From: a virus
Virus record (IMG/VR): IMGVR_UViG_3300036846_000897
Span: 1 to 46,234 of that record
Direction: 5' to 3' (one strand)
Length of the DNA: 46,234 nt
The notes under the pieces were generated by a model. It was not told where the DNA came from, did not search any database, and worked only from the letters and a program-made list of their open reading frames with translations. The position numbers and the translations under genes were made by a program. Positions 4,411 through 42,957 of the stretch are shown piece by piece; position 1 is the stretch's first letter, and the number at the start of each line of letters is the position of its first letter.

Positions 4411-7400
4411 TCAGGGAGGACCGAGGTTGCGGTTGGCCTTGTCGAGCGTGCGGTGCAGCCAGTGGAGGCCCTGGGTCGAATGCAACCGGCGGCGGGCGGT
4501 GACATCGTGGCCCGTCCACGTCCCCGGCGTCGTCCCGCCGTTCCCGCCCGACATGTCGTCGAGCTTGTCCATGGTCGATGGACCGACCACCTGGTCGAAC
4601 ATGCTGCGATTGGCATCGCGCTCATGCTTGGACTTCTTGCCGTCGACAGCGCGGAACAGGCTGCCGGACTTCTCCGCCGCCTTCACCACCCGCGCCGCCC
4701 TGGTGCCCTCGGTGAGCCAGCCCAGCTCGCTGTGCTTGAGCGCCTCGCCGAGCCACTCCTTCGGGTCCTTCGAGGTCTTCTTGCCGGTCACCATGGCCTC
4801 GAGTTTGTAGGACAGCAGGCTGACCGCCGTCGGCCACATGACATGCTTGAGCAGACCCTCGGCATCGGCGCGCGGCAGGTTCGCCATCAGGGTGCGGGTG
4901 GCCGAGGCGCCGAAGAACTCCTTGAGCTGGCCGATCATGCCGAGCGCGACCGCGCCGATAAAGCCGGGCCGGTCGATGCCGGGATTGACCACGCCGAGAT
5001 TAATGTCGCGCTGGATGGCGGTCTCGAATGCGGCGCGCGCCTCCTGGCTGGTCCACTTCTCGGTGTTGGGCAGCAGCACGCTGTCGACCTTGGTGCCGCT
5101 CGCCTCGTACTCGTCGGCAATCTTCGACCACATCCCCTCGGGGATACCGGCGCGCTCCAGCGCGATGAGCTGGTTCTCGGTCGCGGTGCCCTTGGCTGCC
5201 GCCTTGGCAGCGCGATAGATGCCGGTCGACGACACCACGCCGGCCGCCGTGTGCAGCACATCGATCTGCGGCTGGATCATCTTGACCAGCGCCAGCGGGT
5301 CGGCGCCGGCTTGGAGCGTGGTCTCGGCCGTCGAGGCGGCGATATGGGGCGCCGGGTTGCGCGCGGCATCGAGCGCCAGGCCCATCACCTGGGCCTGCCG
5401 GGACGCCTCCCGGGCGAGCTTCTCGTCGGTCATCAGCGACTGTAGGAGGGGCTGCCAGGCGTCCCTGAACACCGTGTCGAGCCCCCAATTGGTGAGAGCG
5501 GCAGCAATCTCCGGGACCGATTGAAGCGCCTCCAGGCCCATCCTGGGAGCGCTGGCGAGGGCATGGGCGGCAGCCGCCAGGTCGCCGATGTTGCGCACCG
5601 GCGCCTCGGGCGTGACGGTGTGGAGGCCGCGCAGCCGGTCGCGCTGCAGGGCGAGGTCGGCGAGATCGCCCGCCTGCGCTGCCGTGGCCGCCGCCTCTTC
5701 GCCCTCGCCCACGGCGCGCACGGCGTGGTCCTGGGCAACGGCCTCGAACACCTTCGACGCTGCGGGGTCGCCGAACCGCTCGGACAGCAGCACGTCCGGC
5801 GTGAAGGTCTTGGCGTAGGCGTCCCATGCCTTCTCGACGTTGCGCTCGATCCACGGACGCGCCCAGGCATTGGAGACGTCGAGCACGCGCTCGACCGGCC
5901 GGTCATCGACACGGGGGAGGCGATCGTCGGGCATGGCGAGGATGTCGTCGGTCAGCTTGGTGGCACGCGCGCGCAGCGCCTGCAGCGAGGCGTCCGGCTT
6001 CGGCGCCAGCGGCGTCGCCGGCTCCTCCTCCTTGAGGCGGCCCTTGTAGGTGGGCTTGATGTGCGCGTTGAAGTGCTGCCCCGCCGAGGGCGCGGCGGCG
6101 AACTTGTCGAAGTCCTCCTTCGGCACCCCCTCATAGAGGTAGGTCTTGCCGGTCTTGGTGAAGGTGACCTGCAGCGTCTTGCTCCCCTCGTCGTAGGAGA
6201 AATTGGAGAACGCGCTGGACTTCGGCGGCTCCTGCTTCGGCGGCTCCTGCTTCGGCGGCTCCTGGTTGGCGGCGAGGTGGTCGGTGAGGTCCGCCTCGAA
6301 CTTCTCCCGGTCAGCCTTGATCGCGGTCTTGTTGAACTTGTGCGGGAAGAACCCCTCGCCCTCCGGCAGCTCGGCCCGCTTGAAATCAGGCACCGCCTTC
6401 TCGGCGCGGCCGGACATCTCCTCGAACATCGGCCTCGCCTGCTCGGCAGCACGGGCAACCTGCGGGATGTCGTGCTTGCCGTTCGCCATCAGCGCGTCGC
6501 CGACCAGGTCGCCGAACTGCTCGAAAGAGGTGATCGGCTCGCTGTCCGGCGGCTTCGGGTTCGCCGCGTAGTCCGTCCACTCCTTCTGCAGCGCGTCGTG
6601 CAGCCGGGCGGCGGCGACGCCCTGCTCGGTGTTCGACATCACCTCCAGCGAAGGCCCACCGCCCAGCGTCGACGGCTTGCCGTCGGTGTCGACCTTGGCG
6701 GTTGCCGCCGCCTCGACGAAGTCGTGGGTGGCGCGCCGCGCGGTGGGACTGTCGCTCTGCAGCGGCCGGCCGACGGCGTCATCGCCCAGCTTGACCTCCG
6801 GACCCGGCATCGGCCGGCCTTGGACGTTAGCGTCCCCTCTGGCGCGCTCGCCGTCCATCGTTTTGGTCAGAGCCTCGAACCGGCCGGGTGCCAGGAATGA
6901 GGCGCCGCTGCCGAGCAGAGCGCCGAGGATGGTGGCAGTGCCGACACTGGTGAGGCGCTCGCCAGCCGTGCGCTCGTCATATTGGCCGGCGAGCAGCGCC
7001 TCCGATACGCCCGCCTGAATGCCGAAGCCGGCGCCGGTCTCCAGCGCGCCCTGCACCCAGGGCTTGGTCTCCTTGAAAACCGTCATGGCAATCTTGCCGG
7101 GCAATATCCAGGTCGGATCGAGCCCGAAGTTGACGGCACCGGCGACGTAGCCCATCGCCCCGGAGCTGGCGAGCACGCGACGATCGGCGATGCCCTGGTC
7201 GATGCGCTGCCCCATCTGCTGGGTTTCTTGGGGCGAGCGCGAGCCGGCAAACTCCGGCGCATGCGCAACCCACATCGGGTTGTTCTTGATGTCGTCCCAG
7301 AACGAGTAGCCCTCGACCGGCGGGTTGGTCAGGACCTGCTGGCGGGTGAGCGCATTGACCAGCCAGTTGCCCTCGCGCAGCGCGCCGCCGATGACCTGCA

Positions 7401-38364: not shown

Positions 38365-38600
38365 TCCCCGAATGTTTCATTGCGGCATGGTGCGTGACGA
38401 TCTATGCGACCGCGCTCGACGCCGGCAGTCGTCACCCGTTCACGGAGCAATATCTGTTCGACGATGAGATCGCCTGCCAGATGTTCAAGGGCATCTACGG
38501 GGCTGACATCGGCAAGGTGCTCACCGGCAAAGGACTGCCGCAGTACCACCGCAACATGATCGTCGAGATGGTGACCTGCAGCCACCCTGGGAGGATTTGA
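38361..38600 (+). CDS. Small hypothetical protein
   Basis: Protein of 79 aa starting at ATG 38361: MIPECFIAAWCVTIYATALD, then FDDEIACQMFKGIYGADIGK and NMIVEMVTCSHPGR. The N-terminus is hydrophobic with two Cys and might be a membrane anchor; the rest is soluble. It overlaps the annealase gene (TGATG). No family recognised. Confidence 0.55.
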   Translation: MIPECFIAAWCVTIYATALDAGSRHPFTEQYLFDDEIACQMFKGIYGADIGKVLTGKGLPQYHRNMIVEMVTCSHPGRI

Positions 38601-39412
38601 TGACCGTCCCCACCCGCGCCGCCAGCGGCAACGTCATCGAGGACGTGATCACGCGTGGCGATCTCGCCAAGCTCAATCCCGAGGAGCGCACGCGGTATTA
38701 CGTGCAGCTGTGCCAGTCGCTCGGGCTCAACCCGCACACCCAGCCGTTCGCCTACATCACGCTGCAGGGCAAACTGTCGCTCTACGCCAAGCGCGACGCC
38801 GCCGATCAGCTGCGCAAAATTCATGGCATCTCGATCAGCATCATCAGCCAAGAGGTGCGCGACGATCTGCTGACGATCCACGTCAAGGCAATCGATCGCG
38901 ATGGCCGCAGCGACGAGGACCTCGGCGTCGTGCCGTTCTCGGCGGCGCTCAAGGGCGAGGTGCGTTCCAACGCAGTGATGAAGGCGATCACCAAGGCCAA
39001 GCGCCGGGTGACGTTGTCGATCAGCGGACTTGGCTTCCTCGACGAGAGCGAAGTCGACAGCGTGCCGGGCGCCCGTCGCCCGCCACCGCCGGCGCCCAAC
39101 GTGATGGAGCCGCCGCACGATCCCGAGACCGGAGAGATCATCGAGCAAGGTTCGCCGCCGACCCAAGTACCAACCTCGACACCGGCGGCGACGACCGCCT
39201 CGTCCGAAACCGAGAGCTACTCAACGACGGACGAGGCGGTCCCTGAGCACGAACTCACCCTCGACGAGGAGGCACGCCTGGCGGCGAGCCACGGCCGCGC
39301 AGCGTTCGAGGTGCTGTGGAAGCGGCTCAATTACGAGGAGCGCAGGTCGCTAAACCCGCTCATGGATGAGCTGGGCCGGTTAACGAGGGAGGCAGACAAC
39401 ACAAAACAATGA
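38600..39412 (+). CDS. Putative single-strand annealing protein (recombinase)
   Basis: Protein of 270 aa. The first 160 residues contain LNPEERTRYYVQLCQSLGLN, HTQPFAYITLQGKLSLYAK, RDAADQLRKIHG and KAITKAKRRVTLSISGLGFL. I recognise this as a phage recombination family in the annealase (RecT-like) class, though not classical RecT. The C-terminal 110 residues are Pro/Thr/Ser-rich and acidic. It follows the exonuclease, as exo/beta pairs do. GGGAGG precedes the ATG, which overlaps the upstream stop as TGATG. Function as annealase is inference from family and context. Confidence 0.65.
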   Translation: MTVPTRAASGNVIEDVITRGDLAKLNPEERTRYYVQLCQSLGLNPHTQPFAYITLQGKLSLYAKRDAADQLRKIHGISISIISQEVRDDLLTIHVKAIDRDGRSDEDLGVVPFSAALKGEVRSNAVMKAITKAKRRVTLSISGLGFLDESEVDSVPGARRPPPPAPNVMEPPHDPETGEIIEQGSPPTQVPTSTPAATTASSETESYSTTDEAVPEHELTLDEEARLAASHGRAAFEVLWKRLNYEERRSLNPLMDELGRLTREADNTKQ

Positions 39413-39487
39413 GGCATGGCATGGCATGACGAGGCTTGGCGGGGCACGGTCTGCCACGGCCGGGCGAAACGCGGTGAGGCCGGCATA
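39412..39487 (+). repeat. GGCNN pentad array 1
   Basis: Starting at the stop codon of the annealase gene the plus strand reads GAGGCATGGCATGGCATG..., a run of about 14 five-base units of the form GGCNN with some decay. It ends at GGCAT followed by the AT-rich ATTAACAAA (TTAACAAA at 39489-39496). The gap to the next gene contains only its ribosome site (GGGAG). Confidence 0.7.
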
Positions 39488-39512
39488 ATTAACAAACCAG
39501 GGAGTAACTGCT

Positions 39513-40385
39513 ATGGCAAAGAAGGCACTAAGGGGCAAAGTCGAGCGCATCGAAGTCAATGAGATACATGCGAGCCGGGTCCATTTCCATCTGTTGGGAA
39601 CGAGCCCGCTCATCTGCAACCGCTTCCAGCAGAAGGCCTGGCAAGAGTTGTTGTTGCCGAGCCTGAGCCGGAACCAGGCTGCGCTCGAACAATCGCTCAA
39701 GCACGATCCGTTCGCCGAGTTTCGTGGGTCAGTTTACAAGAACCGCGATCCTAAGACGAAGGCGCTGGTGCACATGCCGAACGGCGCCTTTCACAAGGCG
39801 ATCTGTCATGCCGCGCTCGACATACCCGGCGCAAAGAAAGCGCAGATCGAGCGCCTCACTAAGGTGGTCGATGTCAACATCGACTTGTTCGGCATTCCGA
39901 GCATCTTCTGCGCAATGGTGCGCAACAGCGATATCTCCCGGACACCCGATGTCCGCACACGCGCCATTTTCCAGGAGTGGGCGGTGGGGGTTACGGTGCA
40001 GTACATCACCGCCATCATCACCGAGCGCTCGGTGGTGAACCTCGCCGGCGCTTCCGGCAAGATCATCGGCGTCGGCGATTGGCGCTCGCAGAAGGGCGGC
40101 AACTTCGGCGCCTACGATGTCGTCGGTGCCGACAACGCGGACTGGAACCGGATCGTAAAGACGCAGGGCCGCGTCGCCCAGCAGAAGGCGTTCGCCACGC
40201 CGATCTTCTACGACGAGGAAACCGAGGAACTGCTGGTTTGGTTCGAACAGGAAATCCAGCGTCGCGAGGCGATGGGTAAGACCGAGGCCGGCCGTAAGCG
40301 CAACGGCAGCAAGCCGCCGAAGGGCGTCACGATCCACCGCACGCGCGGCAAGCCCGGCGATGAAGATTATCTCGGAGCACAATGA
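39513..40385 (+). CDS. Conserved phage protein of unknown function
   Basis: Protein of 290 aa. Segments SRVHFHLLGTSPLICNRFQQ, RNSDISRTPDVRTRAIFQEW and KIIGVGDWRSQKGGNFGAYD belong to a widespread phage family with no established role. The Gly-rich GVGDWRSQKGGNFG loop after a ferredoxin-like alternation recalls RAMP/Cas7-type folds, but this is only a visual likeness. It lies between the two GGCNN arrays together with the next gene, and next to the recombination genes. The start is ATG 39513 with GGGAG upstream. Confidence 0.75.
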   Translation: MAKKALRGKVERIEVNEIHASRVHFHLLGTSPLICNRFQQKAWQELLLPSLSRNQAALEQSLKHDPFAEFRGSVYKNRDPKTKALVHMPNGAFHKAICHAALDIPGAKKAQIERLTKVVDVNIDLFGIPSIFCAMVRNSDISRTPDVRTRAIFQEWAVGVTVQYITAIITERSVVNLAGASGKIIGVGDWRSQKGGNFGAYDVVGADNADWNRIVKTQGRVAQQKAFATPIFYDEETEELLVWFEQEIQRREAMGKTEAGRKRNGSKPPKGVTIHRTRGKPGDEDYLGAQ

Positions 40386-40882
40386 TGACGTCACACCGTG
40401 AAGACCAGATCAAGGCAATCCTCGAAGACATTCGAGCGGAGAACGGCGGCCGGCTGACACGCCAGGCCGTCCTCGCCTACGCGAGCGCCAACAAGAAGAG
40501 CGTGCTCGGCAAGATGTTCGATTGGAACAAGGAAAGAGCCGCGACTGCACATTGGCTCGACCGCGCCCAGGAGATCATCTCGCGATACGTCACGGTCATC
40601 GTCGTCGACGAGACCATGAAAATTAGGGTGCCGTATTATGTCAGCGATCCGACGGCGAAGTCGAACGAGGGTGGCTATGTCGCGACGATGGGCCGACATA
40701 GCCGCGGCGATGCCACCGTGATCGTCACCAACGAACTCGACCGCATCGTCAGCGCGATCGAGCGCGCGCGTGGCATTGCACATGCGCTTGACCAGCAGCA
40801 CCGCGGCCTGTCGGCAAGGCTGCAGGGGATGCTGGAGGAGGCGGTAACGCTGAAAGACTGGCTCGGGGGCATAGCGGCGTAG
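40382..40882 (+). CDS. Conserved phage protein, partner of the 290-aa gene
   Basis: Protein of 166 aa: EDQIKAILEDIRAENGGRLT then VLAYASANKKSVLGKMFDWN and ATAHWLDRAQEIISRY. A beta strand pair follows (VTVIVVDETMKIRVPYYVSD) with a C-terminal helical end. The SVLGKMFDWN...AxxxxLxxAxxIISRY pattern is conserved in phage proteins from recombination/replication regions. It overlaps the upstream gene as ATGA and is followed immediately by pentad array 2. Confidence 0.7.
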   Translation: MMTSHREDQIKAILEDIRAENGGRLTRQAVLAYASANKKSVLGKMFDWNKERAATAHWLDRAQEIISRYVTVIVVDETMKIRVPYYVSDPTAKSNEGGYVATMGRHSRGDATVIVTNELDRIVSAIERARGIAHALDQQHRGLSARLQGMLEEAVTLKDWLGGIAA

Positions 40883-41350
40883 GCGAGGCAGGCATGGCTG
40901 GGCGAGGCGCGGCGAGGCACTGCGAGGCGTGGCCGGGCCGGGCGAGGCAGGCGGGGCATGGCACGGCGCGGCATGGCACGGCGGGAATTGGCGGGGCAAG
41001 GCCCGGCGGGACCTGGCAGGCCTGGATGGCAAGGCCAGCTACGACGGGGCCAGGCGAGGCGAGGCAGGCCCGGATTGACTGAGCATGGCCCGTCCCGGCG
41101 GGGCTGGATCGGGCAAGGCAGGCACGGGCTGGCCCGGCGCGGCTTGGTTTGGCGGGGCGTGGCGAGGCAGGCACGGCGGGGCAAGGCAAGGCGAGGCATG
41201 GCCGGGCGGAGCGCGGCTAGGCGGGGCCGGCAACTCTCGGCAAGACTGGTCCTGACGAGGCGTGGCGAAGCAGGCAAGGCATGGCCTGATGCGGCTGGGC
41301 AAGACGCAGCACGGCACGGCGGGGCTTGGCGCGGCGGGGCAGGCAGGCAA
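40883..41350 (+). repeat. GGCNN pentad array 2 (about 470 bp)
   Basis: From the stop of the 166-aa gene the plus strand is built of five-base units GGCNN in which GGC is kept and NN varies, for example GGCAT GGCAC GGCGC GGCAT. Some units are shortened to GGCA and others have single substitutions. The strand is strongly G-rich over C. It ends at GGCAAATC before TTAACAAAGTGTTAA (41354-41368). Open frames here on both strands are by-products of the repeat. No gene is seen up to 41390. Confidence 0.85.
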
Positions 41351-41389
41351 ATCTTAACAAAGTGTTAATAATTATTTGGATATGCTAAA

Positions 41390-41821
41390 ATGGCATCGCG
41401 GGAACTTCCCTTGTATTGCACCGAAGAGCAGATCGCCGAGTTCGTCCTGGGCCCCGGCCGCCTGCGCGACTGGAAGGATCGCGTCAGGATGTTGGAGCGC
41501 GTTGGCCTGCCGCAGTCTGATCCGGTGATGGGTGGCCGCTACCGGCCGGCTGTCGAGCGGTTCTTTCAGCGGCGCAACGGCCTCACCACAGAAGCGGCCC
41601 CGCGGGTGAAGCCTGATCAACCGGAAAAATGGAAAACCGAATGTCCAGAGTCACCGACCTCCACCGCGACCTCGCCCCCGGCGATGCCCCCGGACTCGAA
41701 TGGAAGTCCCGAGCCAGCGGCAAGCGTGTCCCATATTGGATTGCACCGCGCGCAGCGAAAGCCAAAGGCTTCACCCCAAAAACCATCCAGCTCGACCCCG
41801 ACGCCACCCCGGTCGAGCTAG
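41390..41821 (+). CDS. Putative excisionase-like winged-helix protein
   Basis: Protein of 143 aa; only the first 70 or so residues look folded: PLYCTEEQIAEFVLGPGRLR, WKDRVRMLERVGLPQSDPVM, GGRYRPAVERFFQRRNGL. That pattern is what I recall for small proteins just upstream of rhizobial prophage integrases and could act as excisionase. The rest is Pro/Ser/Thr-rich and overlaps the integrase gene by 193 nt in another frame. TTAACA-AAG-TGTTAA (41354-41368) lies upstream and may be a regulator site. Confidence 0.65.
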   Translation: MASRELPLYCTEEQIAEFVLGPGRLRDWKDRVRMLERVGLPQSDPVMGGRYRPAVERFFQRRNGLTTEAAPRVKPDQPEKWKTECPESPTSTATSPPAMPPDSNGSPEPAASVSHIGLHRAQRKPKASPQKPSSSTPTPPRSS

Positions 41822-42957
41822 CCGCGGCCTGCCGGGTATGGCAGGCGCAGGCCCTGGAGTTCATCACTCACGGGCCACAGGACGATCGAGGCGCATTCGA
41901 CGGCACCCTGCGCTGGCTCATCAACACCTACCAGACCGATCGCATCAGCCCCTACAACACGAACTGCAAGTGGAACACCCAGCAGGTGCAGACCACCTAC
42001 CTGCGCGTCCTCTCCCAGCAGATCGGCATGCGTCAGATCGCCGACGTCACCGGCGCCGACATACGGGATTGGTACGACCACTTCCGTGAGCCCAAACAGC
42101 CGGGCGGGCGCGAGCGCATCGGCTACTCCAACCAGCTGATGTCGACGCTGCGCGCCGTGCTTCGCTTCGGCATCATCGCCGAGCCGCGGGCGCGCGAGGA
42201 GTGCGTCCGGCTTGCTGGCAAGGAGCAGGGCATCCTGTCGTTCATGCGGTTCGAGATCGGCGAGGCACGCACCACCGAGGTGACCGCCGACATGGTCGAC
42301 GCCTTCCGCGCCGAAGCTCACTCCCAGGGTTATCCGTCGATCGCGCTAGCGACTGCGATCCAGTTCGAGACGGCGCTGCGGCAGGCCGACGTCATCGGCC
42401 AGTGGGAGCCGCTCAAGAAGGGCGAGGTCAACGAGCACCAGACCGCCCTGGTCCGGCACTATCACCGCTGGACGACCGGCCTGCTGTGGGGCGAGCACGT
42501 CAGCGCCGACCTCGTGATGATCAAGCCGACCTCGAAGTCAGGGCGCACGAAGAAGGCGGTGTCGGACTGGACGCTGTGTCCGATGATCATGGAGGAACTC
42601 GAGCATGTCCCGCCCGAGCAGCGCATCGGGCCGGTCGTCGTCCACTCCGGGCCGCACTTCGTCACCGGCCCGTGGCGCCGGTTGGCGTTCTGGCGACAGT
42701 GGAAAAAGATTGCCGCCGAGTGCGAGAAGACCGACCCGCGATGGAAGGGCGTCCAGAGCATGGACATGCGGTCGGGTGCGATCACCGAGGCGACCGAGGG
42801 TGTCGACGCCGACGGCATCGAGTTTGCCAACGTGCAGAAGGTGCTCGGCACCCATGCGGCGCGGCAGATGACGCAGCGTTACGCCCGCGGCACGCTCGAC
42901 AAGGCGCGGGCCATCCAGGCGCGTCGGGTTGCAACTCGGAAGAGGCCCCAATCATGA
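41629..42957 (+). CDS. int: Tyrosine-family site-specific integrase
   Basis: Protein of 442 aa (438 if started at ATG 41641, MSRVTDLHRD, which I favour). The N-terminal part has the SGKRVPYWIAPRAAKAKGF segment of rhizobial integrases; a core-binding region follows. Catalytic residues seen are Arg251 (TALRQAD), Arg381 (SMDMRSGAITEAT), His409 (LGTHAARQM) and nucleophile Tyr418 (TQRYAR). The first His of the HxxR box is replaced by Met378, as I recall for some relatives in Rhizobiales. It would integrate the phage at attP, most likely the site at 43392-43544. Confidence 0.88.
   Translation: MENRMSRVTDLHRDLAPGDAPGLEWKSRASGKRVPYWIAPRAAKAKGFTPKTIQLDPDATPVELAAACRVWQAQALEFITHGPQDDRGAFDGTLRWLINTYQTDRISPYNTNCKWNTQQVQTTYLRVLSQQIGMRQIADVTGADIRDWYDHFREPKQPGGRERIGYSNQLMSTLRAVLRFGIIAEPRAREECVRLAGKEQGILSFMRFEIGEARTTEVTADMVDAFRAEAHSQGYPSIALATAIQFETALRQADVIGQWEPLKKGEVNEHQTALVRHYHRWTTGLLWGEHVSADLVMIKPTSKSGRTKKAVSDWTLCPMIMEELEHVPPEQRIGPVVVHSGPHFVTGPWRRLAFWRQWKKIAAECEKTDPRWKGVQSMDMRSGAITEATEGVDADGIEFANVQKVLGTHAARQMTQRYARGTLDKARAIQARRVATRKRPQS

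What the first reader, a model, noticed from the sequence alone, without database searches (positions are those of the whole stretch)
39412..41368. Period-5 GGCNN arrays bracket a two-gene module
Seen directly: two tracts, 39412-39487 and 40883-41350, are built from five-base units in which GGC is kept and the other two bases vary almost freely. Both begin exactly at a stop codon, both end just before the same octamer TTAACAAA (39489 and 41354), and both lie on the same strand, flanking the 290-aa and 166-aa conserved phage genes beside an exonuclease/annealase pair. A simple microsatellite would keep all five bases, and a coding repeat would have a multiple of three. Keeping GGC every five bases while NN drifts suggests selection on spacing, for example a protein that contacts DNA or RNA every half turn, a G-rich R-loop used to start replication, or a recombination substrate for the neighbouring annealase. 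I know of no described system of this form.
Basis: partly seen in the sequence, partly recalled or inferred. Interest (0 to 1): 0.85.

Follow-up and report, generated by a model that had tools for sequence, protein, structure and literature searches.

The report
Phage VIPR guide-RNA arrays
The strange five-letter repeats are arrays of guide RNAs for VIPR, a recently described CRISPR-related system that phages use to switch off rival phages; this phage carries about nine guides, and one of them reads out as a perfect match to a DNA-annealing gene of other phages.

Summary
Both tracts are co-oriented GGCNN arrays (large tract: lag-5 autocorrelation z=10.4; GGC positions 0.4-0.8 bits of entropy, NN positions 1.9-2.0). 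They are best explained as vrRNA guide arrays of a VIPR system (preprint PMC13142463, 2026). The 290-aa gene is a Vipr: its family profile matches the solved SUSP1 Vipr (PDB 36pp, E=5.7e-43) and its AlphaFold model (pLDDT 88) matches Cas7/Csm3 RAMPs. Of 120 viral contigs picked only by the DNA pattern (GGCNN)6GGC, 83 encode a homologue, 81 on the array's strand. The 166-aa gene is a conserved accessory protein unrelated to SUSP1 vap1. The large array divides into eight tail-less guides of about 8-13 units, separated by 4-nt units (mostly GGCA) that shift the register; this punctuation co-occurs with the 166-aa family (Fisher p=5e-7). Read with the published 1-nt-skip rule, guide B6 matches 22 of 22 bases in Sak4-like annealase genes of five viral contigs, with the skipped base at the codon wobble position. 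Four other guides searched gave only chance-level hits. This is a new member of a known kind with an unusual array architecture. Expression, processing and targeting here are inferred, not shown.

The parts
38600..39412 (+).
39413..39482 (+). Array A: upstream vrRNA guide, 13-14 units, NN = AT AT AT GA TT GG AC CT AC CG GA GC GA (several scaffold units mutated)
39489..39496 (+). TTAACAAA, shared 3' end of array A (possible tail, or start of the next gene's control region)
39513..40385 (+). vipr: 290-aa RAMP protein (phrog_4652)
40382..40882 (+). candidate vap (VIPR accessory protein), 166 aa; family found in 42 held loci, in all but one beside a vipr gene
40883..41353 (+). Array B: about eight concatenated guides separated by 4-nt register-shifting units
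40891..40945 (+). guide B1, 11 units; followed by junction GGCA 40946-40949
40950..41014 (+). guide B2, 13 units; followed by junction GGCA 41015-41018
41019..41062 (+). guide B3, about 9 units with an internal 4-nt unit (GGAT); followed by junction GGCA 41063-41066
41067..41116 (+). guide B4, 10 units (half of the GGC scaffolds mutated); followed by junction GGCA 41117-41120
41121..41165 (+). guide B5, 9 units; followed by junction GGCA 41166-41169
41170..41224 (+). guide B6, 11 units, NN = AC GG AA AA GA AT CG GG GC TA GG; decodes to a perfect 22/22 match in Sak4-like annealase genes; followed by junction GGCC 41225-41228
41229..41268 (+). guide B7, 8 units (degenerate); followed by junction AGCA 41269-41272
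41273..41337 (+). guide B8, 13 units; followed by GGCA GGCA 41338-41345
41354..41361 (+). TTAACAAA, shared 3' end of array B; begins a short inverted repeat TTAAC-AAAGT-GTTAA

Best explanation
The module is a phage-borne VIPR system. The 290-aa protein is a Vipr, a RAMP related to Cas7. The GGCNN tracts are transcribed as vrRNAs in which each five-base unit is bound by a Vipr subunit through GGC and each NN is exposed for pairing. A Vipr filament over 8-13 units reads a DNA target as N1N2xN3N4x..., skipping one base per unit, and represses the bound gene of a competing phage. The large array stores about eight guides head to tail; a 4-nt unit (normally GGCA) shifts the register by one base and marks where one guide ends and the next begins. 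The 166-aa gene is the accessory protein of this array type. Shown here: homology, fold similarity, array statistics, the array-gene association, the punctuation, and one perfect decoded target. Taken from the preprint: vrRNA binding by Vipr, the skip rule and repression. Inferred: expression in this phage, use of the junctions as guide boundaries, and the role of the 166-aa protein.
For: Vipr identity: family profile hits PDB 36pp 'SUSP1 Vipr protein' at E=5.7e-43; the 5-member profile also hits it (1.2e-4), as does P0001 alone (0.011). The model (pLDDT 88.4) matches Csm3/Cas7 RAMPs with Foldseek probability 1.00. The G-loop segment IIGVGDWR...FG aligns with LCGVGDWR...FG of SUSP1. Association: 83 of 120 contigs chosen only by the pattern encode a homologue, 81 on the same strand, median distance 53 bp. 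Conversely, 12 of 13 other loci surveyed have a co-oriented GGY array by a fixed threshold and none has one on the other strand; the exception, L133, shows a short GGY tract by eye. Layout as in SUSP1: one guide upstream, several downstream. Guide B6: the middle 8 units were searched; the three units not used in the search (AC, TA, GG) also match 6/6 in five contigs, in one gene family, in the wobble frame. In those loci other skip lengths give at most 16/22. The target is a Sak4-like ssDNA annealing protein (phrog_124, E=6e-36), which the window's phage lacks. No self-targets.
Against: Only one of five guides searched found a convincing target; hits of A, B1, B2 and B8 extend at chance level. 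By my estimate the B6 match has a chance probability of about 1e-3 to 1e-2 after counting gene families and guides; the B6 pattern was not found in 399 Pseudomonadota genomes. The eight segments have no tail between them, unlike the SUSP1-type vrRNA, and the 3' end folds no better than shuffles (z=-0.23). Several units are mutated, so some guides may be dead. No RNA data exist for this phage.
Confidence: 0.95

Rival explanations
1. A decaying pentanucleotide minisatellite produced by replication slippage, with no function.
For: Several units are mutated, and short perfect runs (GGCAT x3) exist in array A.
Against: GGC stays near-fixed while NN is close to maximum entropy. The same arrays recur beside the same protein family in dozens of unrelated contigs. 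One segment decodes to a perfect target.
Confidence: 0.02
2. A G-rich R-loop or G-quadruplex element (GGN3GGN3GG) used to start replication or transcription.
For: Strong G over C skew on the transcribed strand; GG every five bases fits two-layer quadruplex spacing (inference from sequence).
Against: A quadruplex needs only GG, yet the third base is kept as C/T; arrays track the Vipr gene; the 4-nt GGCA punctuation is unexplained by this reading.
Confidence: 0.02
3. A recombination or annealing substrate for the neighbouring annealase/exonuclease.
For: In the window the arrays lie near a RecE-like exonuclease.
Against: The constant partner across phages and plasmids is the 290-aa family, not recombinases: in Gordonia phage Ecliptus the array and its vipr sit between tail genes, and in Rhodoplanes plasmid 1 among virion genes.
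Confidence: 0.01
4. A VIPR system whose arrays are now mostly relics: Vipr still functions, but only a few guides (such as B6) are live. (A sub-case of the best explanation, not exclusive with it.)
For: Guides A, B3, B4 and B7 have several mutated GGC units, and four of five searched guides have no convincing target.
Against: B1, B2, B5 and B6 are nearly intact; the rivals of an uncultured phage are poorly sampled, so missing targets say little.
Confidence: 0.3

Closest known systems
VIPR of Escherichia phage SUSP1 (preprint PMC13142463; PDB 36pp; NC_028808)
   Same: Homologous Vipr with the same G-loop segment; one upstream guide and several downstream; GGY/NN five-base units; co-directional two-gene module.
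   Different: The window's guides are joined directly by 4-nt GGCA units instead of each carrying its own leader and tail; scaffold is GGC rather than mostly GGT; Vipr is longer (290 against 195 aa); the accessory gene is not detectably homologous to SUSP1 vap1.
VIPR types with 'staggered arrays with overlapping vrRNAs' mentioned in PMC13142463 (fig. S18)
   Same: May be the same array type as here: dense continuous arrays without spacers.
Class 1 CRISPR-Cas (Csm3/Cas7 backbone)
   Same: RAMP fold of the effector subunit; by analogy, an RNA read by an oligomer of RAMPs.
   Different: No repeats with unique spacers, no cas operon, no adaptation genes; five-base repeat with two guide bases per unit.

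Membership tests
VIPR | Vipr protein: RAMP homologue, relative of Cas5/6/7 | tested here: met
   SUSP1 Vipr hit E=5.7e-43 with family profile; Csm3-type folds as top PDB matches.
VIPR | RAMP G-loop | tested here: met
   AGxxxGxGDxRPxxxGxxGRF in the 74-member alignment; aligned with SUSP1.
VIPR | RAMP thumb domain | not tested
   No residue-level structure comparison was made.
VIPR | vrRNA of 9-16 tandem GGY/NN units, GGY constant and NN hypervariable | tested here: met
   Segments of about 8-13 units; entropies 0.4-0.8 against 1.9-2.0 bits.
VIPR | Minimal locus: vipr plus vap, flanked by noncoding arrays on the same strand | tested here: met
   Window layout; 81 of 83 loci same strand; 166-aa family in 42 held loci.
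VIPR | Invariable structured 3' tail after each guide (described for type II) | tested here: not met
   The eight guides of array B are joined by 4-nt units without tails; only the array ends share TTAACAAA. Other VIPR types have other array forms, so this excludes a SUSP1-like type II array only.
VIPR | NN read with a 1-nt skip; targets in competing mobile elements, skip at wobble position | tested here: inconclusive
   Met fully for guide B6 (22/22, Sak4-like gene, wobble frame); guides A, B1, B2, B8 gave chance-level hits.
VIPR | vrRNA is expressed and bound by Vipr; target repression | not testable with these tools
   Needs RNA and reporter experiments.
CRISPR-Cas | Arrays of identical repeats and unique spacers with cas genes | tested here: not met
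   No such repeats; no cas genes found among the ORFs scanned.
Simple microsatellite | All positions of the unit conserved or equally decayed | tested here: not met
   Unit entropies.

The most novel reading that the evidence does not exclude
A distinct VIPR type in which many tail-less guides are stored head to tail in one array and separated only by a 4-nt GGCA unit. The one-base register shift ends one Vipr filament and starts the next, and the associated 166-aa accessory family helps to read or process this punctuation.
Probability: 0.35. Interest if true: 0.65.

Novelty: new member of a known kind. Interest (0 to 1): 0.55.

Why it matters
VIPR is a very recent class of RNA-guided DNA recognition proposed to predate CRISPR. 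This locus was found blind from DNA letters alone, which supports the published code independently, and it names a plausible rival gene (Sak4-like annealase). It also points to a compact multi-guide array format with register-shift punctuation that may show how guides are delimited without tails.

Tried and rejected
Local search of all decoded guides (546 tracts; 154 junction-bounded guides) against all held loci with skips 0-3: no excess over shuffled units. Decoded patterns of guides A, B1, B2 and B8 in viral contigs: hits extend at chance level. Full B6 pattern with up to 1 mismatch in 399 Pseudomonadota genomes: none. First AlphaFold job with 5 sequences was useless (pLDDT 41); the 74-sequence alignment fixed it. 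The search for related loci for the 166-aa protein found nothing, although a profile then found it in 42 held loci. Only one relative in the genome-contig scan. Rfam: no match. Terminator scan: none; promoter scan: two minus-strand matches only. Pfam, NCBIfam and PADLOC do not name the 290-aa or 166-aa proteins. No fold was obtained for the 166-aa family; the PDB profile search gave nothing. The host was not identified.

Full report
What is there. Two tracts on the + strand, 39413-39488 and 40883-41353, are made of five-base GGCNN units. Autocorrelation at lag 5 is 0.552 against 0.338 in dinucleotide shuffles for the large tract (z=10.4), with peaks at 10, 15 and 20; there are 47 five-base GGC spacings against 3.7 expected. 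Unit entropies are 0.43, 0.83 and 0.46 bits for G, G and C, and 1.90 and 1.99 bits for the two N. There are no comparable arrays elsewhere in the window or on the other strand.

A described system has this form. A literature search led to preprint PMC13142463, which reports VIPR: a phage RAMP protein (Vipr), an accessory protein (Vap), and vrRNAs of 9-16 GGY/NN units flanking the genes. The NN dinucleotides read double-stranded DNA with one skipped base per unit, usually at codon wobble positions, and the complex represses genes of competing elements.

The 290-aa protein is a Vipr. A profile started from it and four relatives grew to 98 homologues within the held loci. A profile of 74 of them hits the solved SUSP1 Vipr protein (PDB 36pp) at E=5.7e-43; the five-member profile gives 1.2e-4 and the single sequence 0.011. 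The AlphaFold model with 74 sequences has pLDDT 88.4, and its best PDB matches are Csm3/Cas7 RAMPs with Foldseek probability 1.00. The G-loop segment GVGDWR...FG is shared with SUSP1.

The arrays and the protein go together. 120 viral contigs were picked only because they contain (GGCNN)6GGC. 83 of them encode a homologue, 81 on the same strand as the array, at a median distance of 53 bp and never beyond 1.2 kb. In the other direction, 13 loci found through protein or array similarity were surveyed: 12 have a GGY array on the coding strand by a fixed threshold and none on the other strand; the exception, L133, shows a short GGY tract by eye. These include Gordonia phages Pipp and Ecliptus, M. 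abscessus prophage prophiBWHA-1, Sulfitobacter, Paracoccus and Rhodoplanes plasmids, and cluster F (Cheoctovirus) mycobacteriophages Donkeykong and Saal.

The large array is punctuated. The five-base register breaks repeatedly by minus one base. In the window the breaks delimit eight segments of about 11, 13, 9, 10, 9, 11, 8 and 13 units, separated by GGCA, or GGCC and AGCA once each (sequence; segmentation is mine). Over all Vipr loci, 263 of 330 four-nt units are GGCA, and intervals between them are mostly whole units plus the four-nt unit, commonly 8-13 units. Around 198 junctions in 44 loci, NN positions carry about 0.01-0.04 bits away from the junction and up to 0.28 bits next to it. Arrays with at least two GGCA junctions have the 166-aa family in 23 of 26 loci, against 9 of 37 without (Fisher p=5e-7, not corrected for relatedness). 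SUSP1 lacks this: its guides carry separate leaders and tails, and its vap1 is not detectably homologous to the 166-aa protein. The preprint mentions 'staggered arrays with overlapping vrRNAs' in a supplement that could not be read, so I cannot say whether this architecture is already described.

A target. Decoding guide B6 (41170-41224) gives AC GG AA AA GA AT CG GG GC TA GG. The middle eight units with a 1-nt skip were searched in the viral contigs: 12 hits. Eight of them are one gene family, most reading SER(T/S)GKKDIRGAYGLH, with the skipped base at the wobble position. The three units not used in the search match 6/6 in five contigs and 5/6 in the other three. The skip positions vary among the five perfect sites at nine of eleven units. 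The match spans exactly the junction-bounded segment. The gene is a Sak4-like ssDNA annealing protein (phrog_124), absent from the window. Five of the eight family hits come from metagenome 3300047160, which also holds the closest Vipr relative found, L131. Counting about six independent gene families among the B1 and B6 hits and 4^-6 per family, chance is about 1e-3, and perhaps 1e-2 allowing for base composition (my estimate). The four other guides searched (A, B1, B2, B8) gave chance-level extensions and serve as controls. No guide matches the phage itself.

Mechanism. Most likely, Vipr subunits coat 8-13 units of vrRNA, one per unit, and the exposed NN pairs find DNA of competing phages; B6 would silence a Sak4-type annealase, an early recombination gene of rivals. 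Homology, architecture and one decoded match are shown here; RNA binding, the skip rule and repression come from the preprint; expression and guide boundaries in this phage are inferred.

Novelty. The kind of system is known since April 2026. This is a new, uncultured member with a punctuated, tail-less multi-guide array and an accessory family different from SUSP1 vap1.

Noticed in passing
L008 (NC_051648.1), L009 (NC_028751.1), L010 (NC_023580.1), about 5000-6450 of each locus: Cluster F (Cheoctovirus) mycobacteriophages carry a VIPR module: a GGCNN array ending in a GNRA-loop hairpin, a Vipr homologue (e.g. Donkeykong gp49, Saal gp51) and the 166-aa-type accessory gene, all annotated hypothetical.
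   Followed up: partly
L136 (Gordonia phage Pipp), L137 (Ecliptus), L141 (prophiBWHA-1), L138-L140 (Sulfitobacter, Paracoccus, Rhodoplanes plasmids): Unannotated VIPR loci; in Sulfitobacter the punctuation seems to be GGCGGTC(A/G)A instead of GGCA.
   Followed up: partly
phages collection, hits H65-H79: 129 phage records hold a relative of the SUSP1 Vipr segment, mostly Escherichia, Salmonella and Shigella phages, annotated hypothetical.
   Followed up: no
window 38600-39412: 270-aa ORF in the position of an annealase but without any Pfam, PHROGs or NCBIfam match; possibly an undescribed annealase family.
   Followed up: no
window 41629-42957: 442-aa ORF with an integrase-like C-terminus (QRYARG) but no Pfam or PHROGs match; the phage may be temperate.
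   Followed up: no
37 of the 120 loci (e.g. L021, L039, L046, L070): GGCNN arrays without a Vipr homologue in the held stretch: contig edges, simple microsatellites (L029, L102), or perhaps other VIPR types.
   Followed up: no
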